Part shown: piece after piece, positions 2,739-35,002 of the stretch | Position numbering within the stretch: the first letter of the stretch is position 1 | Layout of the letters: every line of letters starts with the position of its first letter | Source of the DNA: Oscillatoria sp. SIO1A7 | Lineage (GTDB): Bacteria > Cyanobacteriota > Cyanobacteriia > Cyanobacteriales > Laspinemataceae | Direction of reading: 5' to 3' | Length of the DNA stretch: 64,000 bases | NCBI GenBank assembly: GCA_010672965.1 | Contig: JAAHFN010000009.1 | Location: forward strand, 1 to 64,000 | Notes under the pieces: generated by a model | What the model was told of the DNA's origin: nothing | Seen by the model: the letters and a program-made list of their open reading frames with translations, nothing else | Databases searched by the model: none | Translations under genes and position numbers: made by a program

Positions 2739-2744
2739 CAGCTT

Positions 2745-2885: not shown

Positions 2886-2940
2886 TTTCCTGGCTAGCTG
2901 CTGTAAAATCTTAGCAGTCTCCTATAAGCGATCGACGATC

Positions 2941-3153: not shown

Positions 3154-3173
3154 TTAGCAATTTTTGGGCGGGT

Positions 3174-3494: not shown

Positions 3495-3676
3495 CAAGCA
3501 GCAAGATTGGCCTATTCTCGCCCTATTCAGAATCGGAATAATTAATTTCTGGCGCGAGTCCAGAAACGAGAGTAAGAGAATCCGATAGGGGAGTGGAAGG
3601 AGCAATGGTCTGCTGCACTTGGGTCAGGGGCATTAGTCCGCCGCAAATTAGGAGGCGATCGCCGGCTTGAAATAGT

Positions 3677-3767
3677 CAGGACTTACGCTTACCTGTCCAT
3701 ATCTAGTATTTGTAGGGGCAATCCCCCCGCGACCTCCCCAATCGATAGTGTCGTTGCGTAAGTCCTG
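3677..3767. mobile_element. Family-C inverted-repeat element (CAGGACTTACGC ends)
   Basis: The left end CAGGACTTACGC and the right end GCGTAAGTCCTG are inverted repeats around about 70 bp that includes TTTGTAGGGGCAATCCCCCC. Other copies lie at 16124-16392, 32753-32889, 33191-33281 and 59745-59836. The remainder of 3154-4131 holds CCCCATG-type repeats near 3790-3850 and no gene that I can support. Confidence 0.75.
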
Positions 3768-4131
3768 ATAGTAAAACTCAAAATTCAAAACTTCCCATGT
3801 CCCCCCATGTCCCCCAGTCCCCATGTCCCCATGTCCCCTCGGTCTCCCCACGCCTGGTCTTGGAAACTAAAGGCAAAAGAGGCCGGTCATCTAGCTAGCA
3901 ATAGCATAACGACAAAGATTATAGGAGTTAGGCAAATTATAGGCTTTATATCTATATATAGCGTGTGGCGACAATTCTTTTAAGAAAAGAACGATATAAT
4001 TGGTGTCTAGTGCGCATTGCACACCCCTACTAAAGGCTACTGAAGGCAGATCGGCTGAAGGCTCAAAGCCGATCTCCTGCTATGTGCGGTAAGTCCCGAA
4101 GCAATAAAGATAAGGTAAAGATCGCTCTCAT

Positions 4132-6962: not shown

Positions 6963-9900
6963 ATGGACATTTTTAGCCATCAGAGTAGTAACTTTCCATT
7001 GCCGGTTCCTCCCGGGATTGCAAGCGATAGCTTGGGGTTAGACCCAGAGAATGCGCAATATGGGTACTTCGTAGGACCGACAGCACTAAATAGTCCTGTA
7101 GGGGATTTCGTAGGACCGACAGTAATAGATTCTCCAGAAAATCTTTCGGAGCAACCGATAAGCATTACGGGCAATTCTCCGCCGCCGCCGCCGAGGGGTC
7201 GGTCAGCTCTAAGCCCGGTAAATCCTTTTGAATCGGGCCTTGTTGAGGTGGGCGACACCGGCCAAGTGACTTTTGATTTCTTGAACGATGGAGGTCACTA
7301 CAAAGGAGAAGTCGCCGTCTTTAATATCGAAGGGATGGGCAATCTAGCATTAGATTCTTCTGCCTTTGTTGAAGAAGCGCTGCGGCGATCGCTATCGGGC
7401 AATTCCGACGACCCAGAGGGTTATATAGTCATCAGCGATCCTGTGGAAAAAGCCCGAGAAGACTTTTCCTTTGACGGTTTCTATCCAAATCAAGGGGAGT
7501 ATCTCGGGCCAAAAACTTTTCAGCTAACTCCAGGGGGCGAGTATGGCTTGTTGCAGGTTCCCAATGGAACGGTGCAAGAGGCTTTTGATGCTTTCTCCAA
7601 CGGTGTCGGACCCCAGGGAGATAAACAACCTCTGTTCTCAATGGCTACGGCCAATCCTAATGATGCTTTCCATGTCGGTCAGATTGCCGATGTTACAGGA
7701 GATAGCACCGTCTTCGTGATGGAAGACAAGCGGGTGGATACCGGATCCGATCGCGACTATAACGATATTATTTTTCGAGTAGCCGGAGCAAGGATAACTG
7801 CGCCAAATATAAAGACAGTTATCAACCCCAATCTGGATTGGACGGATACCCCTGAAGGTCAGGCATTTTTTGCAGAAGTGCAACCGCCGGCAATAGAAGT
7901 TGCTCTAGGAACCGATACGGGTACTGACAATACAGATAGTTTGACTTCCGAGGTAACGGTAGTTGGCACTGTCAGCACAACTGGAGAAATTGCCAGCGTT
8001 CGCGCCGGATTGGATAATATGCCGGTGGCCGACTTCCTAGAAGTAAAGGATTTGCTCGGAGCCGATGGCAGCTTTTCTCTTGACCGAGCCAAGCTAGAAG
8101 AAATTGCAGGCGCGGCTTTGGCAGATGGAGCCCATTCCCTTTATCTCCAATCTGTTGACGATAAAGGAAATATTTCCGATTTCTTCAAGCTGTCCTTTGA
8201 GCTGGATACTGCTGCTCCTGTCATAACTGGCGCGATCGCAGATGATACGGGAGTTAGCAATAGCGATGGGATTACTGCTTCCCCAGCGATCGCCGGCTCT
8301 GTCACAGGAGAAAGTACATCCTTTGAAGTTAGCCTCGACGGAGAAAACTTTACAACTGTCGCATTAGAAGATGATGGCAGCTTCGCCCTAGATCGCAGCG
8401 AACTAGAAACAGTTGCTGGGGCAGGATTGCTCGATGGCAATACCACCGTCTATCTCAAAGCAGGGGATGCAGCCGGGAATGAATCCAGTTCCGAGATTAG
8501 CTTCACTCTCGATAGCGCCAATCCAGCATTGACTTTTAGCGAGAATCTGGCCAATGCCGTATTAGTTCCCGGGTCGCGCCTTGCTGGTACTGCCAACGGC
8601 ACCGGCTCGGATTTAGTTTTCCTAAGCTACGCCTTTGAGGGAGTAAACGAGGAAGTTTCTATAGAACTTGGCGATTCTGGGGACTTCGAGAAAGAACTGG
8701 ATCTTACTACAGTGCCCCAAGGGGCGCAGACTCTCATTGTCAAAGCCATAGACCGGGCGGGAAATGAGACAGTTAGCAGCTATTCGGTAACAGTAGAAGC
8801 CGCTCTGGATACAACAGCTCCAGAAATAGACGTACAAGTCCAAGATACCGGCGAACTTGGGGATAGCATTACTTCTGTGGCTCGGGTAGAAGGACAAATC
8901 GTCGATACCAGCGATATCAAAGAAATTCGCGTTGGTCTCGATACTGCCCCGGAAGCAGAATTACAAGACATAACCGCAGAAGCCTGGAACGACGGGCGCT
9001 TGGTTTTGGATGCGGCCAAACTCCAAGAAATTGCTGGGGGTGACCTGCCCGATGGAGACCATGTTATCCAATTGGAAGCTACCGACATTCACGACAATAC
9101 ATCTACTGTCGAGATTCCTTTTACCCTCGATACTGCCGAACCCGTCGTGAACTTAGCTCAGTCTCTGGACAATGCCTTGTTACCCGGGTCGCGAATCAGC
9201 GGGAACGCCAGCGACAACGCAGGTTCCGGAGTTGTCGAGTTGAGCTATCGCATTGGCGACTTGCCAGAAGTTACGGTAGAAGCGGACGAAACTGGGGCAT
9301 TTGATGTCGAATTAGATCTCAGCCAAGTTGCTAATGGGCAGCAGAGTCTAACTATTATTGCTACGGATAAGGCGGGGAACGTCAGCACTCAGGTATTTCC
9401 GGTGCAAGTCGGTCCTGTACTGCCTCCCAGTGTGGATCATCCGCCAGAAATCGAAGTTTCTCTGGTTAACGATACTGGGGAATCCGATAGCGATCTAATA
9501 ACTAGCGATCCGTCGGTGAACGGACGAGTAAGCGATTCTGGGGAAGTCGCCTGGTTGCGCGTCGGCTTGGACGATATGGCGGAGGCCGATTTCGTAGATG
9601 TAGCCGTTGAGGCCGATGGCAGTTGGTCTCTAGATCGGGCTCAATTAGAGGCAATTTATGGGGATACTCTGCCAACGGGTTCCCGGGTTCTTCGCTTCCA
9701 GGCCGCCGACGAAAACGGCAATATCTCGTCAATAAAAGATTTTGCTTTTACCCTCGAACCTCGTCCCTTAGAAATTGTCGAAATATCTCCGGCTCTCACC
9801 GAGGAACATGTTTCCCTAGACCGAGAAGTCTTAATCCGCTTCTCTGCGCCGGTTAATCCCGATACGGTTAGCTCCGAAAATCTCAAAGTAATCGCTTTGG

Positions 9901-12900
9901 GTGGAGAAGTAGCGGGACGCTGGGTCGTCAACTCTACCGGCGAATTCGCTCGCTTCTTCCCGGATAATCCTTGGGCGGAAAGCGCGGAAATTCGGATTGA
10001 AATTGATGGAGAAGGAGTCTTGGGGGTAGATGGCGGCATTCTGGATGCGGATGCCAACGGAACTCCCGGAGGCGATATTTCCCATGAGTTTCGGACTACT
10101 TCCATGACCCGAATTCCCGATACCGATGTTTGGGGTTATGTTTACGATTCCTACAGCGATGGCGAGACTCCCACTCCCATTGTCGGGGCGACGATTCGGG
10201 TGGATGGTTTGCCAGAAGCAAGCGCTACTACTGACGAAAACGGGTTCTTTATTTTAGAAGATATGCCCGGGCCAGAGTTCTTCGTCCATATCGATGGCTC
10301 TACGGCGACCAATGCCCCAGCAGGTCGGACTTATCCCACAGTGGGCAAGCCTTTCCACAGCGTTCCCGGCCAGTCGGTTCAGCTCACAAGCGATGGCACG
10401 CCTTTCGATATCTATTTGCCTTCGATGGCTGTGGGAGATTTGGTTTCTTTGAGCGCGACCGAAACCCAATCGGTAGGATTCGGAGCGGCGGGCAAAGCGG
10501 CGTTGCAAGAAATTCTTCCCAATGTTGATGCGGCGGCTTGGGACCGGATGAGCGTTGAGTTTGCTCCTAATAGTGCGGTGGATAAGTCTGGTAAGGCTGC
10601 CACCCAAGCAACGGTGATTCCCGTGCCCGCAGACCGGATTCCTGGACCTCTGCCCCTGGGCATTACGCCTCAGTTGGTGGTGTCGATTCAGGCGCTAAAC
10701 GAAGATGGTTTAGTGAATAATTTTGATACCCCAGCGGCGGTGACTTTCCCGAATGTGGAAGGTCTGGCTCCGGGAGAACAAGGGCAGATTATGTCGTTTA
10801 ACCACGATTCCGGTCGGTGGGAATCGGTGGGAACGGCTACGGTTACTGATGATGGGCTGGCGATCGCCTCCGACCCAGGCGTAGGAATTACCGCTCCCGG
10901 CTGGCACGCCCTAGTTCCGTTCACTGTTGGCGATCCCTACCATCCCGAATTACTAGGCTTGCCGCCCGCTCCCACTGTGGACGTGCCGCCGATACCCGAA
11001 ATTTCGGGAGTACAGGATTACTTTTTCTACGACGATAGCGGCGAGCTAACCCTGTCCTTCGGCAACCGCGCCGACCGCCCAAATCCCAATGAGCATCCAT
11101 CAAGCCATCCAGACAATGCTGGTGCAACGCCAATGATGGTGATTATCGAGGTGGGCGGTACGAACTCTACGAACCAGGATGGTCAGCATGCCGAGGAGTT
11201 TATCGACTTGCCTATTTGGCTTGAAGATGGTGTAGGCGCGTTTGATGTACGACCCGGAGAAAAGACGGACATCAAGATTGATGTCCAAGAACTGATCGGG
11301 AGCACAACAGAGGACGCTCTTTACGGGACTAAGCTAACGATCAAGCTAGCAACCCGGACAGTGGGCGGTGGTTTCGATTTTTTTGATACCCAGGAGATGT
11401 TCGTTTATCGCTATGTAGATGCAGCGGACTCCAACCATGACGACCAAACCCTTGAAATGCTGGATACGGTCAATGATGGTGCTGGCGGAGACAAGAAAGA
11501 ACGTCCTCTAGATTTGAAATTATCTCCAAGCGTCGCAGGAACAACTATACAACTGGACGACCTAACCCATTTCTCTTACAGTTCGGGAGCCAGCTCGGGA
11601 ACCTTTACTTTCGACCCGACGGCAACCCAAGACGATCTCAGCACCACAGTTCGGGTTCGTAAACCGGACGGCGTCCAGGTTGGTCAACTGACTATCGAAG
11701 GAGACGGAATAGGGTCTTCAAATACTGGCGCTCTGGGAATAACGAAGCCCACTGCAGCAGCCTTCGGGTCTAGTCTAAGCTTCCGCAAAGTGACAGCAGA
11801 CGGCCCCGGCGGCCAAGAGGCAACGGAGAATCTGCTGCTGACGAATTTCGGTAAGAAAGCTTTAAGCCTTTCCAAGGTAAGCTTCTCGGGCAGCTCCGCA
11901 ATTAAAGTCGCGCAACCGGCCACGACTGTTCTGGCTCCGGGACAAACGACGCCCTTAGCCGTAACCTTCGACCCGACAGAAAAGGGCGAGCAAGAAGCAA
12001 CCCTGACTATCGAAAACGACGGCAACATACCCTTGTATGAATTCAGGATTGAAGGTGTCGGTCAAAGCGCCGATGGCGACATTGAGGTAACGACTGACAA
12101 TAATAATGTCGGCGGTCTTTCTGTAACGGCTGCACCCCTGACCGTAGCCGAGTTCGCTACGATCGGCAATAGCGGCAATAGCGCCCTGACCGTTCGCGAG
12201 ATTAGCATTAACGATCCTTCCGGCAAAGACCAGTTCTCGATCGCTCGCTTGGCGAATCCCTTGGTGCTGAATCCCGGCGATACATACGATCTGGACGTGA
12301 CCTTTGACGCCAAGTTTGTAGGCTTGCAGCGAGCTGAGATTTCGATTTTCTCCGACGACCCGGATACGCCTATCTTCAGCCAGACTGTGGTGGGAACTGG
12401 CTTGGCCGCTGAGGGCTCGGCCTTGAAATACGGTAAGGATTATGTGGCCATAGACTTGGAATCGGGACCGCCGTTGCGGACTCGCAGTCTGGAGTCTGGG
12501 GAATACGAGTTTTTCCTGCGTCCCAACTCCTCCTACAACCAGGCTGTTTTTGACCCGGATAGCGGCTTGATTTCCCATAATTTCGGGACTACCTCTCGCT
12601 CCGGGCAGCCGACCCATTTGCCAACCTCCGGGTTTGAGGCATCTACAGCGCCGGATAGCGATGGAGATGGCTTGCCCGATGATGTGGAATGGGCGATCGG
12701 TACTAGCCAGTCGTCAAAAGATACCGATAACGACGGAATCGACGATTTTGTCGAAATCCAGCAAAATATAGAGGGTCTCGGTGTTGGCTTCCCCACCGGC
12801 ATTATCGCTAGCTTGAACTTGCCCCCGGGTGGGGTTTCCGAACAAGTAGTGCCGGAAGGAGAACATCTCTATGTGGCAACCGGCGGCCACGGCTTGGCAA

Positions 12901-14630
12901 TTGTCGATAGCAGCGAGCCTAACAATCCCATCCAGTTAGGCCAAATCGACTTAGACGGCTATGCCTACGATGTCGGGGTTGACTCCAACCTACAGATAGC
13001 AGCGGTGGCAACTTCGACGGGCCTGGAACTGGTGGATATCTCCGATCCGAACGAACCCAAGCTCAAGCAAACCGTTTCCGGTGCTGCCCGAGAAGTTGAG
13101 GTGGCCAACGGTCTGGCCTATGCAGCCAATCGCACTTCTTTCAAGGTTGTCAACTTAGAGAATGGAGCTGTCATCCAAAACTTGACTCTACCCGGGACTG
13201 GCTCGATTACGGGTTTGGCTCGCGAAGGCACCGAGCTTTATGCTTATGTGAGCCGATTTCCAAACAGCACGCTATCGGTTATTGACATTTCTGCTGCTGC
13301 CACGGGAGGAGCGACGCTATTAGGTTCCGTGGGTGGCCTCAACAGCACTACTGTTAACCGGATCTTTGCCAGCGACGATACGGTATGGCTGCCAGGGGGA
13401 GGAATACATACTGTCGATGTCAGCGACCCCAGCAATCCACAGCGCATCCGACGGTCTGACAGCGCTCTTGCGGCGCGGAGCATTGCTCTCAACGGACCGC
13501 AGCAAAACCTAGGGGTACTGGCAGCGGATTTCCGTGCCTTTGTTGAGGTGTACGATACGAGCGACCCGAACAATACCAACTCAGACGACTTGCTCCAGCG
13601 CTTCCCGCTTTCGAGTAACCCTTACGATGTGGCGATCGGCCGAGGGATAGCTTATGTGGGCACCGAAAACGGATTGGAAGTTTTGAATTACAGCCCCTTC
13701 GATACGGAAGGGAAGCCGCCAACTCCAGTAACCATAGCCAGTCCTCTGACCGGAGCCGAACTGGTTGCCGGAGCGAGCCTTGCTGTTAGCATCGATGCTG
13801 AAGATGATTTCCAATTAAGCCATGTGGAACTCTTGGCCAATGGAGAAACAATCGCCCAAGATGTCTCTTATCCCTTCGACTTTATAACCACAGTTCCAGA
13901 ATTCAATCTGGAGGATACCGCCTATAACCTCCAAGTCCGGGCTTTCGATACTGCTGGCAATAGCACCTTATCTAATACCCTGGTTTGGAATATCTTAGAT
14001 CCCAATGACGAAACACCGCCGACAGCTTCTATTACCAGCAACATAGCTGGCAACCGAGTAGAAGTTGGCGAGCGGATTCAGATTGATGCGGACGTACAGG
14101 ATGATGTAGCAGTAAGCAATGTAGAACTATTGGTGAATGGCGAGGTAGCGGATAACGATGTTTCTGCGCCCTTCGAGTTCGTAACTGTAGCTCCAGAGAT
14201 CGCTCCCGGAGCCGAGACTTTAGAGGTACGAGTCCGGGCGACGGATACCGGCGGCAATACTACCGAGTCCAACGTGTTGGCCTGGAATCTGTTTGTTCCC
14301 GACTTGGAGCCGCCCACAATATCGATTAGCGATCGCGCGGTTGATAGCGACCCATTCAATGCTGGCCTTCAGGTCGCTCCACTAGATTCAGTACCAATTC
14401 GCCTTGATGCTTCTGATAATGTCGGCATCGGCGGTCTGGAACTATTAGTAGATGGGCAAGTGGTAGCAACTAACAACTCGGATTCGTTAGAGTACAACGT
14501 TACCGCTCCCGACGTTCTCACGGGAACGGTGATTCTCAATGTGCAAGGACGAGCAACCGATACTAACGGCAATACCGCTCTCTCTGACGAACGGAACTTT
14601 GTCGTTCACCGGCTCTTTACTCCCTTCTAA
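6963..14630 (+). CDS. Giant multidomain surface/secreted protein (DUF4114, Ig-like, TSP3, LVIVD)
   Basis: 2555 residues. In order: an N-terminal segment with a duplicated 13-residue unit (FVGPT...SP, about residues 35-62); a PPPPP linker; a DUF4114-like domain (about 95-270) ending with its hallmark DRDYNDIIFRV; six Ig-like repeats of about 100 residues (310-930) sharing DGSFSLDRAKLEEIAG and LDTAAP motifs; a Big_5-like domain (936-1050); a carboxypeptidase-regulatory-like domain (1053-1153); two choice-of-anchor/HYDIN-like domains (about 1586-1812); a thrombospondin-3-type calcium motif DSDGDGLPDD and DTDNDGIDD (about 1896-1932); an LVIVD-type beta-propeller (about 1956-2243); and three bacterial Ig domains (2252-2549). 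No N-terminal signal peptide, catalytic site or C-terminal sorting signal was recognised. Adhesin, biofilm or sheath roles are inferred from architecture. Confidence 0.85.
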   Translation: MDIFSHQSSNFPLPVPPGIASDSLGLDPENAQYGYFVGPTALNSPVGDFVGPTVIDSPENLSEQPISITGNSPPPPPRGRSALSPVNPFESGLVEVGDTGQVTFDFLNDGGHYKGEVAVFNIEGMGNLALDSSAFVEEALRRSLSGNSDDPEGYIVISDPVEKAREDFSFDGFYPNQGEYLGPKTFQLTPGGEYGLLQVPNGTVQEAFDAFSNGVGPQGDKQPLFSMATANPNDAFHVGQIADVTGDSTVFVMEDKRVDTGSDRDYNDIIFRVAGARITAPNIKTVINPNLDWTDTPEGQAFFAEVQPPAIEVALGTDTGTDNTDSLTSEVTVVGTVSTTGEIASVRAGLDNMPVADFLEVKDLLGADGSFSLDRAKLEEIAGAALADGAHSLYLQSVDDKGNISDFFKLSFELDTAAPVITGAIADDTGVSNSDGITASPAIAGSVTGESTSFEVSLDGENFTTVALEDDGSFALDRSELETVAGAGLLDGNTTVYLKAGDAAGNESSSEISFTLDSANPALTFSENLANAVLVPGSRLAGTANGTGSDLVFLSYAFEGVNEEVSIELGDSGDFEKELDLTTVPQGAQTLIVKAIDRAGNETVSSYSVTVEAALDTTAPEIDVQVQDTGELGDSITSVARVEGQIVDTSDIKEIRVGLDTAPEAELQDITAEAWNDGRLVLDAAKLQEIAGGDLPDGDHVIQLEATDIHDNTSTVEIPFTLDTAEPVVNLAQSLDNALLPGSRISGNASDNAGSGVVELSYRIGDLPEVTVEADETGAFDVELDLSQVANGQQSLTIIATDKAGNVSTQVFPVQVGPVLPPSVDHPPEIEVSLVNDTGESDSDLITSDPSVNGRVSDSGEVAWLRVGLDDMAEADFVDVAVEADGSWSLDRAQLEAIYGDTLPTGSRVLRFQAADENGNISSIKDFAFTLEPRPLEIVEISPALTEEHVSLDREVLIRFSAPVNPDTVSSENLKVIALGGEVAGRWVVNSTGEFARFFPDNPWAESAEIRIEIDGEGVLGVDGGILDADANGTPGGDISHEFRTTSMTRIPDTDVWGYVYDSYSDGETPTPIVGATIRVDGLPEASATTDENGFFILEDMPGPEFFVHIDGSTATNAPAGRTYPTVGKPFHSVPGQSVQLTSDGTPFDIYLPSMAVGDLVSLSATETQSVGFGAAGKAALQEILPNVDAAAWDRMSVEFAPNSAVDKSGKAATQATVIPVPADRIPGPLPLGITPQLVVSIQALNEDGLVNNFDTPAAVTFPNVEGLAPGEQGQIMSFNHDSGRWESVGTATVTDDGLAIASDPGVGITAPGWHALVPFTVGDPYHPELLGLPPAPTVDVPPIPEISGVQDYFFYDDSGELTLSFGNRADRPNPNEHPSSHPDNAGATPMMVIIEVGGTNSTNQDGQHAEEFIDLPIWLEDGVGAFDVRPGEKTDIKIDVQELIGSTTEDALYGTKLTIKLATRTVGGGFDFFDTQEMFVYRYVDAADSNHDDQTLEMLDTVNDGAGGDKKERPLDLKLSPSVAGTTIQLDDLTHFSYSSGASSGTFTFDPTATQDDLSTTVRVRKPDGVQVGQLTIEGDGIGSSNTGALGITKPTAAAFGSSLSFRKVTADGPGGQEATENLLLTNFGKKALSLSKVSFSGSSAIKVAQPATTVLAPGQTTPLAVTFDPTEKGEQEATLTIENDGNIPLYEFRIEGVGQSADGDIEVTTDNNNVGGLSVTAAPLTVAEFATIGNSGNSALTVREISINDPSGKDQFSIARLANPLVLNPGDTYDLDVTFDAKFVGLQRAEISIFSDDPDTPIFSQTVVGTGLAAEGSALKYGKDYVAIDLESGPPLRTRSLESGEYEFFLRPNSSYNQAVFDPDSGLISHNFGTTSRSGQPTHLPTSGFEASTAPDSDGDGLPDDVEWAIGTSQSSKDTDNDGIDDFVEIQQNIEGLGVGFPTGIIASLNLPPGGVSEQVVPEGEHLYVATGGHGLAIVDSSEPNNPIQLGQIDLDGYAYDVGVDSNLQIAAVATSTGLELVDISDPNEPKLKQTVSGAAREVEVANGLAYAANRTSFKVVNLENGAVIQNLTLPGTGSITGLAREGTELYAYVSRFPNSTLSVIDISAAATGGATLLGSVGGLNSTTVNRIFASDDTVWLPGGGIHTVDVSDPSNPQRIRRSDSALAARSIALNGPQQNLGVLAADFRAFVEVYDTSDPNNTNSDDLLQRFPLSSNPYDVAIGRGIAYVGTENGLEVLNYSPFDTEGKPPTPVTIASPLTGAELVAGASLAVSIDAEDDFQLSHVELLANGETIAQDVSYPFDFITTVPEFNLEDTAYNLQVRAFDTAGNSTLSNTLVWNILDPNDETPPTASITSNIAGNRVEVGERIQIDADVQDDVAVSNVELLVNGEVADNDVSAPFEFVTVAPEIAPGAETLEVRVRATDTGGNTTESNVLAWNLFVPDLEPPTISISDRAVDSDPFNAGLQVAPLDSVPIRLDASDNVGIGGLELLVDGQVVATNNSDSLEYNVTAPDVLTGTVILNVQGRATDTNGNTALSDERNFVVHRLFTPF

Positions 14631-27452: not shown

Positions 27453-29747
27453 ATGATGATTTTATCTAGTCGATTATCCGCCTGCTTGTTTGGGGCGGGT
27501 GCAGCATTGGTCACAAGTGTAGGGGCGATTTCACCATTTGCCCTAAACGCGCTAGCTCTGAGCCAAAGGGAGGTTGACGCGATCGCTTGGCAAGTCTCGG
27601 TATTAATTAGTCCCAATCTCACCAAACGCGGCGATCGCCTAATTATCCAGGGAGAGAAAACCGGCAGTGGAGTTATTCTGGCTCGCAATGGCAACACTTA
27701 TTATGTATTAACCGCTTTACATGTTGTTTTGAAAAGAGGCGGTTTCCACGCGATCGCGACTCCTGACGGTAGAGTCCATTACGTCGATGCCAGCTCCAAT
27801 AGCAGTGCAATTATCCCTTTGGGTTCTCTTGCGGGAAATCTGGGACAACAAATTAACGGCTTGGATTTAGCATTGCTAAAATTTGAAAGCGATCGCTCCT
27901 ATCCGGTGGCTCGGATAGCTAGCGAAAGGGTTAGAAAAAACGAATCGGTCTTTGTGAGCGGCTGGCGAAATCCCTCAGATTTAAGAAGGACGACGCGCTT
28001 TCGACGTCTAACTCCAGGCTCTATCAGAGAAATTGTTAATTCCGATTCTACCGATGGGGGTTACAGCTTGCTCTACAGCAATGAAACGGGAGCGGGTACG
28101 AGCGGCGGACCGATTTTTAACGCCAGCGGACAGTTAATCGGCATTCACGGTCGGGGGCGCGGCATTGAAAACAATTGTAGCAGCATTCCAGAGTTGAATG
28201 TAAATAATAGCTGCGGAATGCAGCTTATTGATTTTCTAAACCATCCTCAAGTGCGGGCGGCTAGACTAGAATTCAATCGCAATCCTCCAGATAGGGAAAT
28301 GATTCGCTATGGACTGACCCATCGAAGCCAGAGCGATCGCATTGGCGGCATAAACTCTCCCAATCCAACCCCTTCACCGCCGCAAGCTAATTTACCTCCA
28401 GAGAACTTACCTCCAGAGAACTTACCTCCAGAGAACTTACCTCCAGAGAACTTACCTCCAGAACCGAGTCCCGATTCAGAAGAGGGCAATATTTATTATG
28501 TCGATCCTCAGAGAGGTACTAATAAAGCGACGGCTGGCAGCCGGGACAATCCTTTTCGCTCTATTACCTATGCCCTGCAAGGAATCAGACAGGGAACGAC
28601 TATTCAGCTCGCTCCGGGGACTTATAACCAGGAAAAATTTCCGATTAAACTGAAGCCGGGGATTATTCTCAAAGGAGATAGCGATCGCCAGGGACGAGGA
28701 GTTACGATTTTAGGTGGAGGCTTTCTGGTGACGCGCACTTCTGGCAACTACAATACGGCTATTTTGGCTGCAAAAAATTCTAGCATTATCGGCTTAACCG
28801 TTACTAATAACAACCAAGGAGGCACTGGCATTGTAGTAGATGGAACCAATCCTACAATCGGCAATAATACTTTTGCCAACAATGGGCGAGATGGTATTGT
28901 AGTTGCCGGGGACGGGTCTCCCAGAATTGACAATAATCTATTTCTGAATAATAGAGGCAATGGGATTGCCGTTATTGGCTCGGCCAGTGGCGACATTAGA
29001 AATAATGATTTTCAGAATACTGGATTGGGCTTGGCTATAGGGGAGACAGCGGCACCTGTAGTGGCAGATAATCACATTCGCGCCAATAAAACTGGGATAG
29101 CGATCGGGCAACAGTCTCGCCCGACTTTGCAGGGAAATATTATAGAGAATAACCAGGAATATGGCCTGCTAGTCATGGCCGAAGCCAGAGCAGAAGTTAC
29201 GGGCAATAATCTATTTAGGAATAATACGACGAGCGATCGATTGATAGCCAGAACCAAAACATGGCCTGTAAACCCAAGAGCTGAAAGCGGACAAACTCCC
29301 ATATTTGGTTGCATAGAATATGATGGAGGCATAGCAACTTTTGCCCAAAACGGCAACTCATCTATTCCCAGACCAATGCTGACCTGGAACAATTCGCGAT
29401 CGCTTCCGCCAAAGAACCGTTGCGATTTGGCAACGCAACGACTAAGAGGAATTGTCGATAATTTCGTTCGTAATAACGGTCGGTTAGAGCAAATGTTTTT
29501 GTCTAGCGGACGAGTGAATGATAGCCCAGCAATCTGTTTGCTAGAAGACGAAGCAGAACGCTGTAACAATAGCAATATGCTGTTTTTGCTAAGTCCCGAA
29601 CAACAAAACAATCCACTAGAAGCTTTGGAGCAATTGCTTATTTTTGAGGGAGCAACGGTTTCCCCGGCTGGCTCTGAAGTGCGAGCCTCTTTAAAACCTC
29701 TGGCACAAAGCTTGCAACCAGAACTTGGTTTGTGGTTTGCAGATTAG
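27453..29747 (+). CDS. Secreted trypsin-like protease with beta-helix (DUF1565-like) domain
   Basis: 764 residues. Signal peptide near residues 1-36. A trypsin-like domain (about 40-265) shows the triad: His in TALHVV, Asp in NGLDLALL, Ser in GAGTSGGPIF. A linker has four or five copies of LPPEN (about 312-335). Residues about 345-590 form a DUF1565/right-handed beta-helix repeat (LAPGTYNQEKFPIKLKPGI, then many NNxF rungs). The last 150 residues contain four cysteines and an unrecognised domain. Expected in periplasm or outside the cell. Its second ATG (position 2) is also possible. Confidence 0.85.
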   Translation: MMILSSRLSACLFGAGAALVTSVGAISPFALNALALSQREVDAIAWQVSVLISPNLTKRGDRLIIQGEKTGSGVILARNGNTYYVLTALHVVLKRGGFHAIATPDGRVHYVDASSNSSAIIPLGSLAGNLGQQINGLDLALLKFESDRSYPVARIASERVRKNESVFVSGWRNPSDLRRTTRFRRLTPGSIREIVNSDSTDGGYSLLYSNETGAGTSGGPIFNASGQLIGIHGRGRGIENNCSSIPELNVNNSCGMQLIDFLNHPQVRAARLEFNRNPPDREMIRYGLTHRSQSDRIGGINSPNPTPSPPQANLPPENLPPENLPPENLPPENLPPEPSPDSEEGNIYYVDPQRGTNKATAGSRDNPFRSITYALQGIRQGTTIQLAPGTYNQEKFPIKLKPGIILKGDSDRQGRGVTILGGGFLVTRTSGNYNTAILAAKNSSIIGLTVTNNNQGGTGIVVDGTNPTIGNNTFANNGRDGIVVAGDGSPRIDNNLFLNNRGNGIAVIGSASGDIRNNDFQNTGLGLAIGETAAPVVADNHIRANKTGIAIGQQSRPTLQGNIIENNQEYGLLVMAEARAEVTGNNLFRNNTTSDRLIARTKTWPVNPRAESGQTPIFGCIEYDGGIATFAQNGNSSIPRPMLTWNNSRSLPPKNRCDLATQRLRGIVDNFVRNNGRLEQMFLSSGRVNDSPAICLLEDEAERCNNSNMLFLLSPEQQNNPLEALEQLLIFEGATVSPAGSEVRASLKPLAQSLQPELGLWFAD

Positions 29748-29792
29748 CTTTAGGGTGTGGGGTGTAGGGTGTGGGGTGTGGGGTGTAGGGTA

Positions 29793-29955
29793 GGGTGTTG
29801 ACTCTGTGGGGAAAGACAAAGATGGATTTCATGCAGTTTTTGTACCGCGTCTAGAGAGGGCTGAAATCCTTACTAAGAGAGGGTTTCGGGATTTTCGAGC
29901 CGGCGCGATCCCCGTTGGTAGCCAACGAGTCGGAAAACCCACAGAGTCAACACCC
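29793..29955. mobile_element. 163-bp MITE-like element with 18-bp terminal inverted repeats
   Basis: GGGTGTTGACTCTGTGGG at 29793-29810 is the exact reverse complement of 29938-29955. A TA flanks each side, as for mariner/IS630-type insertion. It has no ORF. It is inserted in a GGGTGTA heptamer array and is the only copy I noticed. Confidence 0.75.
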
Positions 29956-30112
29956 TAGGTGTAGGGTGTAGGGTGTAGGGTGTAGGGTTTAGGGTTTAGG
30001 GTGTGGGGTGTGGGGTTTAGGGTGTAGGGTGTGGGGGGCGTGGGGTTTAGGAATGAAGAATTGGGAATTGGGGGAAGTTTAAATGTTAAGATTTTAGCTT
30101 GTGAGTTTTAAA

Positions 30113-30211
30113 GGGAGCATTTCAATTTTGTACGCTGCCGCCTGACGCCTAAAGGCGCGGCTACACAAACAAAGCCCTTCGGGCTATTAGTTGCAAAAGT
30201 GAAATGCTCCC
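30113..30211. mobile_element. Family-B element with perfect 8-bp target duplication
   Basis: The ends are GGGAGCATTTCAATTTTG and GTGAAATGCTCCC, 99 bp. The direct flanks 30105-30112 and 30212-30219 are both GTTTTAAA. The interior TGCCGCCTGACGCCTAAAGG resembles the copy at 16195. Confidence 0.9.
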
Positions 30212-30303
30212 GTTTTAAATTTTAAACTAAAGAATTGCAACTCACAAGCTAAGAACTGTCCCTTGCCTCCCTACACCCTACACCCTACACCCTACACCCT
30301 TAG

Positions 30304-32676
30304 TTAGATATTAATACTGGTCATAATCCACTCCAAAGGAATGCCCGGTTCAATGCGATCGCGGTATTTCCAGAACAGATTCTTTAAAGCGACAGGGCCA
30401 ACCTCCATGATGGGATTGTAATGGACATTAGCAAGTTGCCACATCAATTTGACCTGAGCTTCCTGCTTCTCATCCACTGTATTTTGGTTGTAACTCCGAT
30501 CGCCCTTATCCCACAAACCAATAGCCGCATAGTCAACGTCGCCGCCATCTTCATACTGCTTGCCATTCACCCAAGAATGGAAAAAGGTACTGTGATAAAT
30601 CACATAGATGCATAGTTGCCTTAAGTCTTCGATTCCGGCGATCGCCAAGCTTCCCTTTTCCGGCGGGAGAATAGAATGAACTATCAAATCCCGGGACATA
30701 TCCTCGATTTCCTGCCAATGCTCGCGGATGCCCTGTCGATTTTCCTCAAAGAATTGCCCTACATATTCTTCTAGCAGGCTCCAAGTACATAGAGCTGCCC
30801 GGTCAAAATAGTTATTAACAATGCGATCGGGTAGCGCCTGCACTACCGGAGACCATTTATAACTTAGTTCCTTAACCTCATCTTTAAGAACCTCAAATAC
30901 GCTCTCGGGAGTCAGCGCCGAGGCTTCCGGCAGAAACCCAGTATTGCCGATAATCAGCGCCGCCCCTCGCTTGTTAATATTCAGCAAACCTTCCAAATGG
31001 GGTTCTAGCAATTGGCGGATGGGATTGTTCTTTACATTACGATAGAAGGCCATCGCATATTGATCCATATTCATATGCGTCCTGCCCAGATGAGTTTGTA
31101 TTTCCTGATATACAAATTCGGCGCTACGGAACAAGCGTTTTGACCATTCCCAATTCAAATCCCCCGGGAAGTGGGTGGCTATTTCCTCTCCCAGCTCGAA
31201 CTTAATCGAATGAACCTGCAAGTTCTCGCCATCCAGAACGAATCTGGCTTCTATAAACTTAGGCAACAAACCTCCTGGCTCCAGTTTATAGCGTCCGGTA
31301 TTATAGGAAATTGCGTATTGCCAGTCTTGTCCCGCGACACGGTTGAGCTTGCCCGGATTAAACCCATTCAGGCGACGCTCTACGAAGAAAGCATCGCTAA
31401 ACTTATCTGGATGGCATCGAGTCAAGTTAGCAGGCATCCACTCGGCAGCATGTTTTCCTGGCATAGCGCTAAAGCCAATCCGCTCGGATATAATCGGCGG
31501 AATTACATTGGCAAAAGGCAGGACGCGCAACCCTAGCTGAGCGAAATATTTGCCAGTAGGCTGCACGCTGGATGGCAAGGGGCGGGTAAAGTCGAATCTG
31601 GGCAGGTCGCGCCCTGCTTCTCCATAATAGGAAAAAGCTGGCTTAGATTTGTCAAACTTTTCAGTAAGCCAATAAATGAAAAAACGTACCGAGCTAGCCC
31701 ATTTATAGACCCGAGTGCGAATCGAGTTGATTGAGTTTGGATCGGATATAGATTCGCCCTCGACGATTCCTAAAGAGTCTGGTTGATTGCCAATGTTGAA
31801 GTGTAGTTTCTCCGTTTCGTCTGAAGATAGGGCTCTATCGATCGCAACTGTCGCTAAATCCAGCCAGGGAGAAGTGCTTTCATCCCAATCTTCTTCCTGA
31901 GAAAAAATCCTCTCCTTATTATCCTCTACATTTTCCTGTAGGCGCAATTGGAGCTTATAGATGATTTCTTGTTGCGAGGCTCGCTCGACATATTCTGCCC
32001 GCAAATAGTCAATAGGCCGGTTTTCAGAGTCCAGGCGCTTCTGAAGCCAAGGGGTTTCCATGTCCTTGGCAGAGGGTATTCCCGACTCTAAACCTGATTC
32101 TGGAATTAAGCGATATTTAACATAGCGAATTTTTCCATCCTTGGCTTTGAAGTAGTTGACCAGTTTGGAATAATAATAGAGCTGAGCAAATGAATCTGGC
32201 GATCGCCGCAGAGAAGTGGCAAAGATTTTCTCAAAAACTGGGTTTTCTTTTAAGAATGCCTCAAGCCCTTTGGAGCTTACGGGTTCGCCTTCTTCTCTGC
32301 CCGAGATCGAAGCCATTGTGAATTGCCAGAAGTTAATGGCATTCAGGAAAGTTCGCGGCCCTGTATTCATAATCAAATCCAGGGCAGTTTCCGATTGCTT
32401 ATCCAAGAATTTTATCGAGGCGCTGCGAATGTCCATCGCCGCGTCGTCCTCAAAAGTTACCGTCCCGTGTCTCAGTAGCACCGGAAAAGTTCGCCCCGCT
32501 TGGAAAAACTCGTGTTCTGGAAAAGCCGGATCGTCCACAATCCTAAGCTGCCCTGCCCCCCCTACTCCATATTTATGGGTAGTACGAGCTTTGTTGTTCG
32601 CGGCACCCAAGGCGAACAAGAGGCCGACTGCAATAGTAAAGAAAAACAAAACAATTTTGTCCAGAATTTTTTTCAT
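30304..32676 (-). CDS. Catalase-related/lipoxygenase fusion protein
   Basis: 790 residues with an N-terminal signal or anchor (KIVLFFFTIAVGLLFALGA). Residues about 31-350 resemble catalase-related allene oxide synthases: THKYGVGGAG holds the distal-His position (H34), followed by FPVLLRHGTVTFEDDAAMDI and IGNQPDSLGI. The C-terminal part is a compact lipoxygenase: FFVERRLNGFNPGKL, then iron ligands H529 and H534 (HLGRTH), H700 and N704 (HSWVN), and the C-terminal Ile790. Lipoxygenase makes a fatty acid hydroperoxide that the heme domain can convert, as in Anabaena and Acaryochloris fusions. The proximal heme Tyr was not located with confidence. Products are unknown. Confidence 0.85.
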   Translation of the reverse strand: MKKILDKIVLFFFTIAVGLLFALGAANNKARTTHKYGVGGAGQLRIVDDPAFPEHEFFQAGRTFPVLLRHGTVTFEDDAAMDIRSASIKFLDKQSETALDLIMNTGPRTFLNAINFWQFTMASISGREEGEPVSSKGLEAFLKENPVFEKIFATSLRRSPDSFAQLYYYSKLVNYFKAKDGKIRYVKYRLIPESGLESGIPSAKDMETPWLQKRLDSENRPIDYLRAEYVERASQQEIIYKLQLRLQENVEDNKERIFSQEEDWDESTSPWLDLATVAIDRALSSDETEKLHFNIGNQPDSLGIVEGESISDPNSINSIRTRVYKWASSVRFFIYWLTEKFDKSKPAFSYYGEAGRDLPRFDFTRPLPSSVQPTGKYFAQLGLRVLPFANVIPPIISERIGFSAMPGKHAAEWMPANLTRCHPDKFSDAFFVERRLNGFNPGKLNRVAGQDWQYAISYNTGRYKLEPGGLLPKFIEARFVLDGENLQVHSIKFELGEEIATHFPGDLNWEWSKRLFRSAEFVYQEIQTHLGRTHMNMDQYAMAFYRNVKNNPIRQLLEPHLEGLLNINKRGAALIIGNTGFLPEASALTPESVFEVLKDEVKELSYKWSPVVQALPDRIVNNYFDRAALCTWSLLEEYVGQFFEENRQGIREHWQEIEDMSRDLIVHSILPPEKGSLAIAGIEDLRQLCIYVIYHSTFFHSWVNGKQYEDGGDVDYAAIGLWDKGDRSYNQNTVDEKQEAQVKLMWQLANVHYNPIMEVGPVALKNLFWKYRDRIEPGIPLEWIMTSINI

Positions 32677-32752
32677 AGATGCCGCTTTTCTTCCTCCAGT
32701 ATTTTTACTATTAAATCAACAATATCTTTTTCCGTCAAGGGAGAACACCTTC

Positions 32753-32889
32753 AGGACGTAAACTGTCCGTATTTAGTATTTGTAGGGGCAATCCCCCGCG
32801 ATCGCTCTTGTGCGGAGCCTGCGCGACAGCGCATAGCGTCTCCCAATGCGAGAATCGCCCCTATTCCTACAATGCTTGCGTAAGTCCTA
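32753..32889. mobile_element. Family-C element, left end degenerate
   Basis: The left end CAGGACGTAAACTGTCC is altered; the right end TTGCGTAAGTCCT is intact. The interior TTTGTAGGGGCAATCCCC matches 3677-3767. It lies upstream of the fusion gene, within its probable promoter region. Confidence 0.6.
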
Positions 32890-32943
32890 ACCTTGAAAGC
32901 TACACAAACTTTTTAAGGTCCCTCGCTAAAATTTTAAGCCAGA

Positions 32944-33083
32944 TATAGCATTTCTCAAATAAGTGTAATAAGCGATCGGGTAGGGGCGACAGCATCCCCC
33001 TTGACCATCTCTGCTGTAAAACGGGGATTCCGATCTTGGGATGCTTCGCCCAGACACTTTCCATCAATTTGAGAACCGCTATA
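32944..33083. mobile_element. Family-A element, copy 5
   Basis: TATAGCATTTCTCAAATAAG to ATTTGAGAACCGCTATA, 140 bp, core as in copy 1. Confidence 0.8.
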
Positions 33084-33190
33084 GCCTGTCAAGGTAGTTT
33101 TGAAAGTCAAGTAGTTTTTTCTACGATGCCCAATACCCATAGTTAGGGTGTGGGGTGTTGGGTGTAGGGTGTAGGCAAAAGAGGCTTAAT

Positions 33191-33281
33191 CAGGACTTAC
33201 GCTTGCCTGTCCATATCTAGTATTTGTAGGGGCAATCCCCCCGCGTTCGCCCCTAGTCCTTGAGTCGATGCGTAAGTCCTG
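33191..33281. mobile_element. Family-C element
   Basis: CAGGACTTACGC to GCGTAAGTCCTG, 91 bp, very similar to 3677-3767 including TGTCCATATCTAGTATTTG. GGGTGT heptamers lie just upstream and CCCTACA heptamers downstream. The rest of 32677-33421 holds no gene. Confidence 0.8.
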
Positions 33282-33421
33282 TTAATGCTGATACTCCCCT
33301 CGTCTCCTTCTTCTTCTCCCTACACCCTACACTCTAGTTTTTTGCCCAATTCCGCTCTTCCCAATTTCCAATTCCCAAGTTATGATAGTTCTCGAAGCAC
33401 AGATATAGCCGCCCTAAAACT

Positions 33422-35002
33422 ATGCAAGCCATTGATTCGCCGCCAAAAGTAATTCAAGCATTAACCCTAGATGCACCCGTTACCACGGTTACATTGCTAG
33501 AAGACCGGGCTTTAGTACGGCGTCTTGGCAAGGCCAATCTAACCCCAGGATTGTGGCGAGTTAGGGTGGAGCAAGTAGCACCGGTGCTGTCAGACAAATC
33601 TCTGCGAGCGGAGTTTTATGGCAGTTATCCAGAAGCGCGCATAACTGACGTTCGCATTCGCCGCCAAATGCTGATTAAGGAAGAAGAGCAACCGCAGGAA
33701 ATTCAGACTTTGCTGGCAGAATGGCGATCGCTCCGCAATAGCTTCAAAAATCTTTGCGAAGATCGCCAGCATCAAGAATATAGCTTTCAGCAAGTAGCAG
33801 ATATTTTGAGCATGGGACTGGAGGAAGTGCCGGTGGATGCTATCTGGGGACAAATCGACCCTAAATCCTGGCGGGAGCAATTTCAAACTCTTTTCAATCA
33901 GTTGCGTTCTTTGCGAGGGGAGATTTTGAAAAATCATCAGAATCAAGAGCAACTAAGCGAGCGGCTCAACGACCTCAGTGCTAGAATTCAGCTTATGTCG
34001 CGGCCGGATTTGACTTACAGCGCTTATATAGAAGCTGACTTGGCGATCGCCTCCCCCGGAGAATGCGAACTAGCTTTCGATTATGTAGTTCCCAATGCCT
34101 TATGGCGTCCCTGGCACCAAGCTCGCTTGCTCCTAGACGAAACACCTTCCCTTTCCTTTCGCGTCGATGGTTGTGTCTGGCAGCGAACTGGGGAAGATTG
34201 GCATAACGTAGATTTAGTTTTTTCTACCGCTCGCGCTTCCCTAGGAACGGAGCCACCTTTGCTCCAAGACGATTTTTTAAACGTGCGGGAAAAATCCTCG
34301 CAAATTAAGATTCAAGCTCGGGAACAGAAAGTTCAAAGTACCGGAGAAGGCTCTACAGTCCCGGGTATTGTGGAACTTCCCGGAGTTGACGATGGCGGAG
34401 AAGTGCGGAATCTGCGCTCTACTACTAAAGCCACTATTCTTTCTGACGGTCGCCCCTATCGCGTGCCTCTATTTTCCTTTGAGTCTGCGGCGGAAGTCGA
34501 ATATGTTTTAATGCCAGAATTTGCAACCCAAGTAGTTCTCAAAAGCGAGCAGACGAATACGGCACCATTTCCAATTTTAGCCGGACCAGTTGACTTGCTT
34601 CGTAAGAGCGAATTTGTCGGCAAAACATCGGTATTGTTTATCGCTCCTGGGGAAAAGTTTTCTCTGGGATGGGGTGCCGATGCGGCGATGCGCGTGCAAC
34701 GCACCCAAACCAAGAAGAAAGAACAAGACCATCTGACTAAGTGGAATAGCGTTACGGTAACTACTAATTTATTTCTCTCTAATATTGGTGCCGAGCCGAG
34801 AACTATTAAGACTACGGAACGCATCCCGGTTTCCGAACTAGAGCAGGTCAAGGTAGAGGCGATCGCCGATGAAACCACAGACCGAGTACAGCCGGACGAA
34901 AATGGTTTCTGCACCTGGAATTTTAGCCTCGCGCCTTATTCCCAACTTCAAGCCAATCTCGTTTATAAAGTATCCGCAGCTCCAGAGGTTCGGGGTCTTT
35001 AG
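33422..35002 (+). CDS. MuiA-like DUF4139 domain protein
   Basis: 526 residues. The N-terminal part (VTTVTLLEDRALVRRLGKAN) is DUF4140-like, followed by a coiled-coil-forming region (about 90-185) and a C-terminal beta-rich DUF4139 region (about 200-520; VPNALWRPWHQARLLLDE, then WHNVDLVFSTARAS). This is the arrangement of 'mucoidy inhibitor MuiA' family proteins, whose biochemical role is not known. No signal peptide. It stands alone on the plus strand. Confidence 0.8.
   Translation: MQAIDSPPKVIQALTLDAPVTTVTLLEDRALVRRLGKANLTPGLWRVRVEQVAPVLSDKSLRAEFYGSYPEARITDVRIRRQMLIKEEEQPQEIQTLLAEWRSLRNSFKNLCEDRQHQEYSFQQVADILSMGLEEVPVDAIWGQIDPKSWREQFQTLFNQLRSLRGEILKNHQNQEQLSERLNDLSARIQLMSRPDLTYSAYIEADLAIASPGECELAFDYVVPNALWRPWHQARLLLDETPSLSFRVDGCVWQRTGEDWHNVDLVFSTARASLGTEPPLLQDDFLNVREKSSQIKIQAREQKVQSTGEGSTVPGIVELPGVDDGGEVRNLRSTTKATILSDGRPYRVPLFSFESAAEVEYVLMPEFATQVVLKSEQTNTAPFPILAGPVDLLRKSEFVGKTSVLFIAPGEKFSLGWGADAAMRVQRTQTKKKEQDHLTKWNSVTVTTNLFLSNIGAEPRTIKTTERIPVSELEQVKVEAIADETTDRVQPDENGFCTWNFSLAPYSQLQANLVYKVSAAPEVRGL

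What the first reader, a model, noticed from the sequence alone, without database searches (positions are those of the whole stretch)
30304..32676. Catalase-related/lipoxygenase fusion with all five iron ligands
The 790-residue protein joins a catalase-like heme domain (distal His candidate H34) to a compact lipoxygenase. The canonical ligand set is visible: H529, H534, H700, N704 and a C-terminal Ile790. Fusions of this kind are known in few cyanobacteria (Anabaena, Acaryochloris) and in corals, and make unusual oxylipins. This one has an N-terminal hydrophobic segment, so it may act in the periplasm or at a membrane. I could not locate the proximal heme Tyr: the aligned region reads SISDPNSINS rather than a catalase RxxxY pattern, so its heme chemistry may differ.
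Basis: partly seen in the sequence, partly recalled or inferred. Interest (0 to 1): 0.85.

Follow-up and report, generated by a model that had tools for sequence, protein, structure and literature searches.

The report
Cyanobacterial coral-type catalase–lipoxygenase fusion
This cyanobacterial gene joins two fatty-acid-oxidising enzymes in one protein, as a few other cyanobacteria and soft corals do, but its heme half is of the coral type and not of the type found in the usual cyanobacterial fusions, which suggests that the same two-step oxylipin factory was assembled more than once.

Summary
The "missing" proximal heme tyrosine is not missing: Y324 (R320-T-R-V-Y324) aligns with Y353 of coral allene oxide synthase, and R31, T33, H34, R69, N104 and R331 match the other heme-site residues. 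So there is no evidence for unusual heme ligation here.

What is new is the kinship. The heme half is 45% identical to coral cAOS but only 31-34% identical to the heme halves of 12 Anabaena-type fusions. The LOX half is 54-62% identical to the LOX halves of those same 12. Both halves are closest to unfused neighbours in four named cyanobacterial records, where the order is LOX then heme gene. In Anabaena-type fusions both halves diverge in step. The window protein is therefore a fusion with a different heme partner, seen once in the genomes searched. Its clade also shares a very hydrophobic N-terminal helix, probably a membrane anchor. Best reading: a membrane-tethered two-step oxylipin synthase (LOX hydroperoxide to allene oxide or a related epoxide). 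Sequence does not decide the exact product.

The parts
30304..32676 (-). 790-aa catalase-related/lipoxygenase fusion gene
   Evidence: ORF; Pfam Catalase + Lipoxygenase; phmmer to 1u5u/3dy5 and 5ek8; AF2 models and superposition
32596..32673 (-). N-terminal helix, residues 2-27, strongly hydrophobic over 8-26; likely membrane anchor
   Evidence: AF2 helix 2-27 in both models; mean hydropathy 2.61 here and 2.31-2.70 in the four unfused relatives, against at most 0.94 before the distal motif in 12 Anabaena-type fusions
31663..32676 (-). catalase-related heme domain, residues 1-338: R31, T33, H34 (distal), R69, N104, R320, Y324 (proximal), R331
   Evidence: residue map onto coral cAOS R64, T66, H67, R102, N137, R349, Y353, R360; Z 31.9 to 1u5u over 315 residues
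   Evidence: codon tat read
31639..31662 (-). junction, residues 339-346, between the heme domain and the LOX start motif YYGEAGRDLPRF
   Evidence: comparison with the ends of the unfused heme proteins and the starts of the unfused LOX proteins
30307..31662 (-). mini-lipoxygenase half, residues 339-790: ligands H529, H534, H700, N704, I790
   Evidence: alignment of 38 LOX rows; Z 29.6 to 9R-LOX 5ek8 over 385 residues, model residues 339-786
32754..32887 (-). 134-nt dispersed repeat just upstream of the gene (possible influence on its promoter)
   Evidence: own-genome search listed 42 matches, 40 of 415 first-look candidates scored; a second, partial copy at 33207-33280

Best explanation
A bifunctional oxylipin synthase. 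Step 1 (inferred from conserved ligands and fold): the C-terminal mini-lipoxygenase adds O2 to a polyunsaturated C18 acid and makes an R-configured hydroperoxide, most likely at C9 or at the n-7 carbon, as described for related cyanobacterial enzymes. Step 2 (inferred from the heme site): the hydroperoxide moves to the N-terminal coral-type heme domain, where T33-H34 above the heme and Y324 below it serve to cleave the O-O bond and rearrange the product, most likely to an allene oxide, possibly with epoxy alcohol or another epoxide. The hydrophobic N-terminal helix probably tethers the protein to the cytosolic face of a membrane near its lipid substrate. Evolution (shown by identities and trees, within the sampled sequences): the LOX half belongs to the same lineage as the LOX half of Anabaena-type fusions, but its heme partner is a different, coral-type one. 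The pair also exists as neighbouring separate genes in reverse order, so this fusion was formed separately from the Anabaena type, or was split apart in its sister lineage.
For: Heme half: phmmer 8e-76 to coral cAOS; every heme-site residue listed for cAOS in PMC5617202 is kept (R64, T66, H67, R102, N137, Y353, R360); Z 31.9 to 1u5u over 315 residues, aligned from model residue 2 on, whereas ordinary catalases are aligned from residue 26-30 on. LOX half: five ligands kept; Z 29.6 to the 9R-LOX 5ek8. Partner exchange: among 66 pairs of 12 Anabaena-type fusions the heme and LOX identities run together (66.0 and 64.0%; difference +2.1, sd 3.1, range -6.4 to 8.7); window against its 4 unfused relatives 64.1 and 61.7%; window against the 12 Anabaena-type 32.3 and 57.8% (difference -25.5, range -29.8 to -19.5). 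Heme tree: window with the 4 unfused heme proteins 96/93, plus coral and G026 100/99; window + Anabaena-type as one clade rejected, AU p 0.0035. LOX tree: window with 6 rows of the unfused clade 100/98; window + 14 Anabaena-type rows (L031 and L036 among them) rejected, p 0.016. LOX-then-heme order on one strand in 4 of 4 (gaps 43, 82, 152, 42 nt). Substrate: 6 FA_desaturase-family (PF00487) matches in the own genome, one of which is a beta-carotene hydroxylase by NCBIfam.
Against: Only one fused example of this type was found. The first LOX tree with distant rows left the window unresolved; support appeared after 13 distant rows were dropped, and the groups for the AU tests were chosen after seeing trees. 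Positions that set AOS against lyase in coral do not settle the product: cAOS L150 is F116 here (Phe in coral lyase), and the carboxylate-binding K107 is T74; the region has gaps. Both models are only moderately confident (mean pLDDT 67.8 and 68.5), with residues 28-35 and 29-35, which hold most of the distal site, below 50. Only the first and last aligned residues are reported, so the alignment of the N-terminal helix is read from the range; two mycobacterial catalase-related proteins are also aligned from residue 9-11. No activity data exist. Hydropathy alone does not prove a membrane anchor.
Confidence: 0.72

Rival explanations
1. An ordinary member of the Anabaena-type fusion family whose heme half merely evolved fast; no partner exchange.
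For: Same domain order and nearly the same length as Anabaena-type proteins; LOX halves 54-62% identical; the root of the heme tree is not fixed, and without an outgroup both trees put window + unfused on one side and the Anabaena-type on the other.
Against: Within each group the halves diverge in step, and only between the groups do they part by 25 points; coral cAOS and a G026 protein join the window's heme clade at 100/99; one heme clade rejected, p 0.0035; distal Asn kept here, Ser (11) or Gly (1) in the 12 Anabaena-type; L021, whose LOX is next to this clade in the LOX tree (98/98), is 60.7% identical to the window in the LOX half but 30.9% in the heme half.
Confidence: 0.15
2. The heme half is a hydroperoxide lyase or epoxy-alcohol / leukotriene-A-type epoxide synthase and not mainly an allene oxide synthase.
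For: F116 at the position of coral L150, Phe in coral HPL. An Anabaena catalase-LOX fusion makes an allylic epoxide (PMC11719350, passage). The defined catalytic residues of coral AOS are also conserved in coral HPL (PMC5617202 abstract).
Against: Phe at this place is common to all 12 Anabaena-type rows, the 4 unfused ones and G026, and coral cAOS L150F kept its product pattern (PMC5617202, Discussion), so Phe is not diagnostic. Overall kinship is to cAOS.
Confidence: 0.35
3. An exported, periplasmic enzyme: the N-terminal segment is a signal peptide or N-in anchor.
For: Lysines before a 19-residue hydrophobic stretch.
Against: The coral cAOS structure is aligned from model residue 2 on, so the helix seems part of the fold. 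In the four closest gene pairs the heme protein has the segment, but the LOX proteins start with polar MNQSSSNP-like sequence.
Confidence: 0.2
4. A true H2O2 catalase fused to a LOX, for protection.
For: Pfam names the domain Catalase.
Against: Closer to coral cAOS (42% identity, Z 31.9) than to the catalases listed (15-19%, Z at most 24.1); cAOS does not scavenge H2O2 (PMC5617202, Introduction).
Confidence: 0.05

Closest known systems
Coral allene oxide synthase-lipoxygenase (Plexaura homomalla, PDB 1u5u, 3dy5)
   Same: Heme domain N-terminal, LOX C-terminal; 45% identity of the heme half; all heme-site residues listed in PMC5617202
   Different: Mini-LOX here against the larger coral LOX with its C2-like domain; K107 and L150 not kept; N-terminal helix very hydrophobic here (that stretch of the coral protein was not compared by sequence)
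Anabaena PCC 7120 catalase-LOX fusion type
   Same: Domain order and overall length; LOX half 54-62% identical to 12 proteins that I call Anabaena-type
   Different: Heme half only 31-34% identical; distal Asn kept where they have Ser or Gly; hydrophobic N-terminus. PCC 7120 itself was not among the records compared; the type name is my own, from their genera
Acaryochloris marina catalase-related AOS/LOX fusion (Gao et al. 2009, known here only through citing papers)
   Same: Bifunctional LOX + catalase-related AOS in a cyanobacterium
   Different: The Acaryochloris and Acaryochloridaceae relatives met here (L024, L025, L027) have the Anabaena-type heme half; the published protein itself was not compared
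Cyanothece PCC 8801 9R-lipoxygenase (PDB 5ek8)
   Same: LOX fold (Z 29.6, 385 residues) and iron ligands
   Different: Stand-alone 668-residue chain, 28% identity
Capnella imbricata hydroperoxide lyase-lipoxygenase
   Same: Catalytic heme residues; Phe at position 150
   Different: Coral protein; its Ser177 is a hydrophobic residue here; product of the window protein unknown

Membership tests
Catalase-related allene oxide synthase (coral cAOS type) | Heme-site residues R64, T66, H67, R102, N137, Y353, R360 | tested here: met
   R31, T33, H34, R69, N104, Y324, R331 (list from PMC5617202)
Catalase-related allene oxide synthase (coral cAOS type) | cAOS fold, nearer than ordinary catalase | tested here: met
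   Z 31.9 over 315 residues against at most 24.1 for the catalases listed; model pLDDT 68.5
Catalase-related allene oxide synthase (coral cAOS type) | Substrate-carboxylate Lys (K107/K60) | tested here: not met
   T74 and N28. K107 is also absent from the 12 Anabaena-type rows (which have Lys or Arg at K60), so it may not be a family mark
Catalase-related allene oxide synthase (coral cAOS type) | Leu150/Leu177 of AOS against Phe/Ser of lyase | tested here: inconclusive
   F116, and F152 or A153 depending on a one-residue numbering doubt, in a gapped region
Catalase-related allene oxide synthase (coral cAOS type) | Makes allene oxide from a fatty acid hydroperoxide | not testable with these tools
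   Needs an assay
Lipoxygenase (mini-LOX) | His, His, His, Asn, C-terminal Ile iron ligands | tested here: met
   H529, H534, H700, N704, I790
Lipoxygenase (mini-LOX) | Lipoxygenase fold | tested here: met
   Z 29.6 to 5ek8; PF00305 over cut-off
Lipoxygenase (mini-LOX) | Ligands co-locate around one iron | not tested
Anabaena-type catalase-LOX fusion | Heme domain first, mini-LOX second, in one chain | tested here: met
Anabaena-type catalase-LOX fusion | Heme half groups with the heme halves of that type | tested here: not met
   Clade rejected, AU p 0.0035; 30.9-34.0% identity
Anabaena-type catalase-LOX fusion | Ser (or Gly) at the distal Asn position | tested here: not met
   N104 here; 11 Ser and 1 Gly in 12
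Secreted/periplasmic protein | Cleavable signal peptide or proven export | not testable with these tools
   Only hydropathy was computed

The most novel reading that the evidence does not exclude
A membrane-anchored catalase-LOX fusion made by partner exchange: the LOX of the Anabaena-type lineage was re-paired with a coral-type allene oxide synthase, first as a two-gene unit and then (or before) as a fusion. If so, at least two cyanobacterial lineages, and corals separately, hit on the same two-enzyme chain, and this clade holds the nearest bacterial relatives of coral cAOS among the sequences compared here.
Probability: 0.5. Interest if true: 0.6.

Novelty: new variant of a known kind. Interest (0 to 1): 0.47.

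Why it matters
Catalase-LOX fusions are a clear case of substrate hand-off between two oxidative enzymes. A natural series (Anabaena-type fusion, unfused gene pair in reverse order, and a second fusion with a coral-type heme half) lets one test which features of the heme half set the product, and whether fusion or membrane tethering speeds transfer. It also offers a bacterial relative of coral AOS. The check removes the suspicion of odd heme ligation from this protein and points to where such a suspicion is better placed (the 774-aa class).

Tried and rejected
Unusual proximal ligand in the window protein: rejected, Y324 aligns with coral Y353.

Relics of an extra LOX or heme gene beside the window gene, as might be left if the fusion came from a tandem duplication: none; the three tblastn matches in the two flanks were 7, 11 and 16 residues long at E 2.4-3.7.

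Shared neighbourhood in the same family: 7 stretches of 16-18 kb around homologues of two neighbours, from 7 of the 13 other family genomes, each held only the queried neighbour and none of the 17 other window genes tested at E 1e-15, the fusion gene included, so there is no empty-site argument.

Rfam: 0 matches in 29700-33500. Promoter and terminator scans are unspecific. NCBIfam: no family for the protein.

Plasmids: 12 of 72,556 records match, none over 80% of the query. Viral and metagenome collections were not searched (one search failed; metagenome scans are capped at 0).

Product from sequence: not decidable. Recalled rule that Gly rather than Ala at one LOX position favours R products: position 571 is Gly in this protein and in all Anabaena-type and unfused rows, but the rule and the exact site are from memory and are not used as a test.

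Rows left out: heme tree without L010 (same as L065), L048 (the same protein as L026), L060, L056, and without L061, whose fragment was below the 150-residue limit. LOX tree without duplicates and fragments of L008, L009, L016, L017, L010, L048, L060, L027 and L036. Second LOX tree without 13 distant rows, after the first tree had left the window unresolved. In the hydropathy scan the part of L028 before its first Met was not scanned; one search repeats the scan over the whole stretch before the distal motif.

Papers: PMC5617202 seen as abstract, passages, Introduction and Discussion. PMC10813956, PMC11719350, PMC11507377 and PMC4574779 as passages only. The others only in search listings. Three key papers (PMC5267355, PMC2755933, PMC4528142) are not held. 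I did not read the Anabaena or Acaryochloris originals. [quoted passage not shown] In the listings (the last showing 10 of 25) I saw no title or abstract start about this clade, but only open-licence papers are searched.
Full report
Observation. The window holds an uninterrupted 790-codon ORF at 30304-32676 on the minus strand. Pfam gives Catalase (31-299, E 1.5e-8) and Lipoxygenase (507-620, E 3e-7), both over the curated cut-offs; NCBIfam has no family for it. Against solved structures, residues 20-331 match coral allene oxide synthase 1u5u (E 8e-76) and the LOX half matches 5ek8 (E 2.8e-40).

The proximal tyrosine. The phmmer alignment puts the window's R320-T-R-V-Y324 on coral R349-V-A-V-Y353, and a 22-row alignment agrees. 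The residues that PMC5617202 lists for coral cAOS (heme-coordinating R64, R102, R360; distal T66, H67, N137; proximal Y353) are R31, R69, R331, T33, H34, N104 and Y324 here. The suspicion of different heme ligation is therefore not supported. Two substrate-side features of coral cAOS are not kept: K107 is T74 and L150 is F116.

Structure. A model of the whole protein (20 sequences; mean pLDDT 67.8, pTM 0.52) has coral AOS-LOX, coral AOS and a Cyanothece 9R-lipoxygenase as its three best Foldseek matches. VIA-align gives Z 28.1 to 1u5u (310 residues, 3.1 A, model range 1-338) and 29.6 to 5ek8 (385 residues, 2.9 A, model range 339-786). The heme domain alone (14 sequences; pLDDT 68.5, pTM 0.74) gives Z 31.9 to 1u5u (315 residues, 2.9 A) against at most 24.1 for the ordinary catalases listed. 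The coral alignment starts at model residue 2, ordinary catalases at 26-30, and two mycobacterial catalase-related proteins at 9-11. So the N-terminal helix seems to be shared with coral cAOS and partly with that mycobacterial kind; only the ends of the aligned range are reported. Residues 28-35 (29-35 in the second model) have pLDDT below 50, so the site geometry is not tested.

Relatives. The own genome (9.08 Mb, 182 contigs) has no second fusion; it has three other LOX genes with open frames of 652-659 aa, far from this clade in the tree. One scan of genome contigs gave 19 named loci. By ORF reading and tblastn they are: 4 unfused pairs (L032 Crocosphaera MAG, L033 Calothrix MAG, L034 Okeania MAG, L038 cyanobacterium SBLK); 2 LOX genes of that clade with no heme gene seen in the locus (L035; L037, frame-broken); 11 Anabaena-type fusions (L020-L030, L025 broken at its end); 1 decayed Anabaena-type (L031); 1 truncated LOX (L036). 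In 4 of 4 pairs the order is LOX then heme gene on one strand, with gaps of 43, 82, 152 and 42 nt. 'Anabaena-type' is my name for the fusions of this second kind; Anabaena PCC 7120 itself was not among the records.

Census. A search of 388 genomes of the order with the heme half found 16 at E 1e-10. From open-frame length, identity and reading of the loci (G422 by its table row only) I sort them as: this fusion 1 (the window); intact unfused type 3 (G637, G581, G510; the TAG listed for G581 is read as its stop codon); remnants of that type 3 (G586, G595, G422); Anabaena-type fusions 6 (G423, G101, G382, G628, G030, G547); a third, 774-aa class 3 (G516, G408, G627; the last cut by a contig end). 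Several are the same contigs as named loci (lengths agree, e.g. G637 C17 and L032), so the two sets overlap. In the window's own family 1 of 14 genomes has a match at E 1e-20. Searches of three more families (61, 13 and 50 genomes) gave 2, 2 and 3 matches, all already. A search of 386 genomes of the phylum with the whole protein gave 12 at E 1e-20, LOX-only matches included. The window's architecture is thus a single case.

Kinship of the halves. Within 66 pairs of 12 Anabaena-type fusions, heme identity averages 66.0% and LOX identity 64.0%: they diverge in step. Window against the 4 unfused pairs: 64.1 and 61.7%. Window against the 12 Anabaena-type: 32.3% (30.9-34.0) for the heme half, 57.8% (53.5-61.8) for the LOX half. 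The difference, -25.5 points (-29.8 to -19.5), lies outside the range of -6.4 to 8.7 within the Anabaena-type. Coral cAOS is 45.4% identical to the window's heme half, 40.9-42.6% to the four unfused ones and 27.7-34.1% to the 12 Anabaena-type. phmmer bits to 1u5u are 259 for the window and 138.5 for an Anabaena-type protein, L005.

Trees. Heme half (22 rows): window with the four unfused proteins 96/93; these with coral cAOS and a G026 protein 100/99; the 12 Anabaena-type 100/99 apart. AU rejects all cyanobacterial fused heme halves as one clade (p 0.007) and window + Anabaena-type (p 0.0035); a clade of window, unfused and coral without the G026 row is not rejected (p 0.32), so the place of coral against G026 is open. 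Without the two longest rows the result stays. LOX half: with 38 rows the window is unresolved; without 13 distant rows it joins six rows of the unfused clade at 100/98, and one clade with 14 Anabaena-type rows is rejected at p 0.016. That removal was made after seeing the first tree, and all test groups were chosen after seeing trees. The LOX tree, rooted on L008, L009, L016 and L017, puts this clade beside L021/L031 (98/98), inside the Anabaena-type; L021 is 60.7% identical to the window in the LOX half but 30.9% in the heme half. The heme tree has no sure root, so the identity gap carries more weight than the topology. I read the whole as a change of partner. Direction (fusion here or split there) is not decided.

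N-terminus. The most hydrophobic 19-residue stretch averages 2.61 here. Before the distal motif it averages 2.31-2.70 in the four unfused heme proteins, at most 0.94 in the 12 Anabaena-type and 0.90-0.92 in the 774-aa class. The unfused LOX partners start with polar residues. If heme protein and LOX work together, as the gene order suggests, both should be on the cytosolic side; I therefore favour a cytosolic-face membrane anchor over export. This is inference.

How it most likely works. LOX half: hydroperoxide of a C18 acid. The passages read say that the A. marina LOX domain makes 9R-hydroperoxide from linoleate and attacks omega-3 acids at the n-7 carbon, and that an Anabaena catalase-LOX fusion turns 9R-hydroperoxide into an allylic epoxide (PMC11719350). 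The own genome has 6 FA_desaturase matches; NCBIfam names one of them beta-carotene hydroxylase and gives no above-cut-off name to the others, so substrate supply is plausible, not shown. Heme half: by kinship to cAOS an allene oxide is the first guess, but the defined catalytic residues are shared by coral AOS and lyase (PMC5617202 abstract), and the positions that distinguish them are not informative here. Shown: domains, residues, fold match, kinship. Inferred: both reactions, hand-off, membrane place.

Setting. The gene stands alone on its strand between a protease/beta-helix gene (27453-29747, +) and a DUF4139/DUF4140 gene (33422-35002, +). A 134-nt dispersed repeat lies at 32754-32887, 77 nt before the start codon, with a partial second copy at 33207-33280.

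Verdict. A real and intact fusion of a known kind, with a heme half of a kind not expected in it. New variant of a known kind; interest moderate, limited by the single example and the lack of activity data.

Noticed in passing
L062:3903-6224, L063:1971-4292 (G516, G408; also G627, cut by its contig end): A third catalase-LOX fusion class of 774 aa: distal Thr-His and Asn kept, but the proximal RxxxY reads GxxxH followed by Y. This is where heme ligation may really differ; its two halves match the Anabaena-type equally (32.0 and 31.6%).
   Followed up: partly
L016:109-2883 (G068); similar open frame in L017 (G072): Protein of 925 aa with Laminin_G_3 (two matched stretches) in front of a mini-LOX, beside a second mini-LOX gene; only L016 was scanned with Pfam.
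   Followed up: partly
L065:3781-5187 and 2277-4004 (-) (G026): A stand-alone coral-type heme protein (39.5% to coral cAOS) whose open frame overlaps that of a LOX of another class on the same strand: a different LOX partner.
   Followed up: partly
L060, L061, L054, L031: Decaying copies: L060 keeps the first part of the LOX and the last part of the heme gene, L061 and L054 only heme-gene fragments, L031 a broken Anabaena-type heme half before a LOX.
   Followed up: partly
window 32754-32887 and 33207-33280: Dispersed repeat with inverted ends (GGACTTACGC...), at least 42 matches in the own genome (40 of 415 candidates scored); perhaps a small mobile element.
   Followed up: partly
L003, L004 (G000 contig C123, about 49.6-51.9 kb): Two further LOX genes of about 655 aa close together on one strand in the same genome, plus one on C128 (L002): a LOX-rich cyanobacterium.
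   Followed up: no
L035 with L022, and L037 with L025: Two assemblies (both MAGs) carry both an Anabaena-type fusion and a LOX gene of the window's clade on other contigs.
   Followed up: no
window 6963-14630: 2555-aa protein with bacterial Ig-like domains, DUF4114 and LVIVD matches.
   Followed up: no
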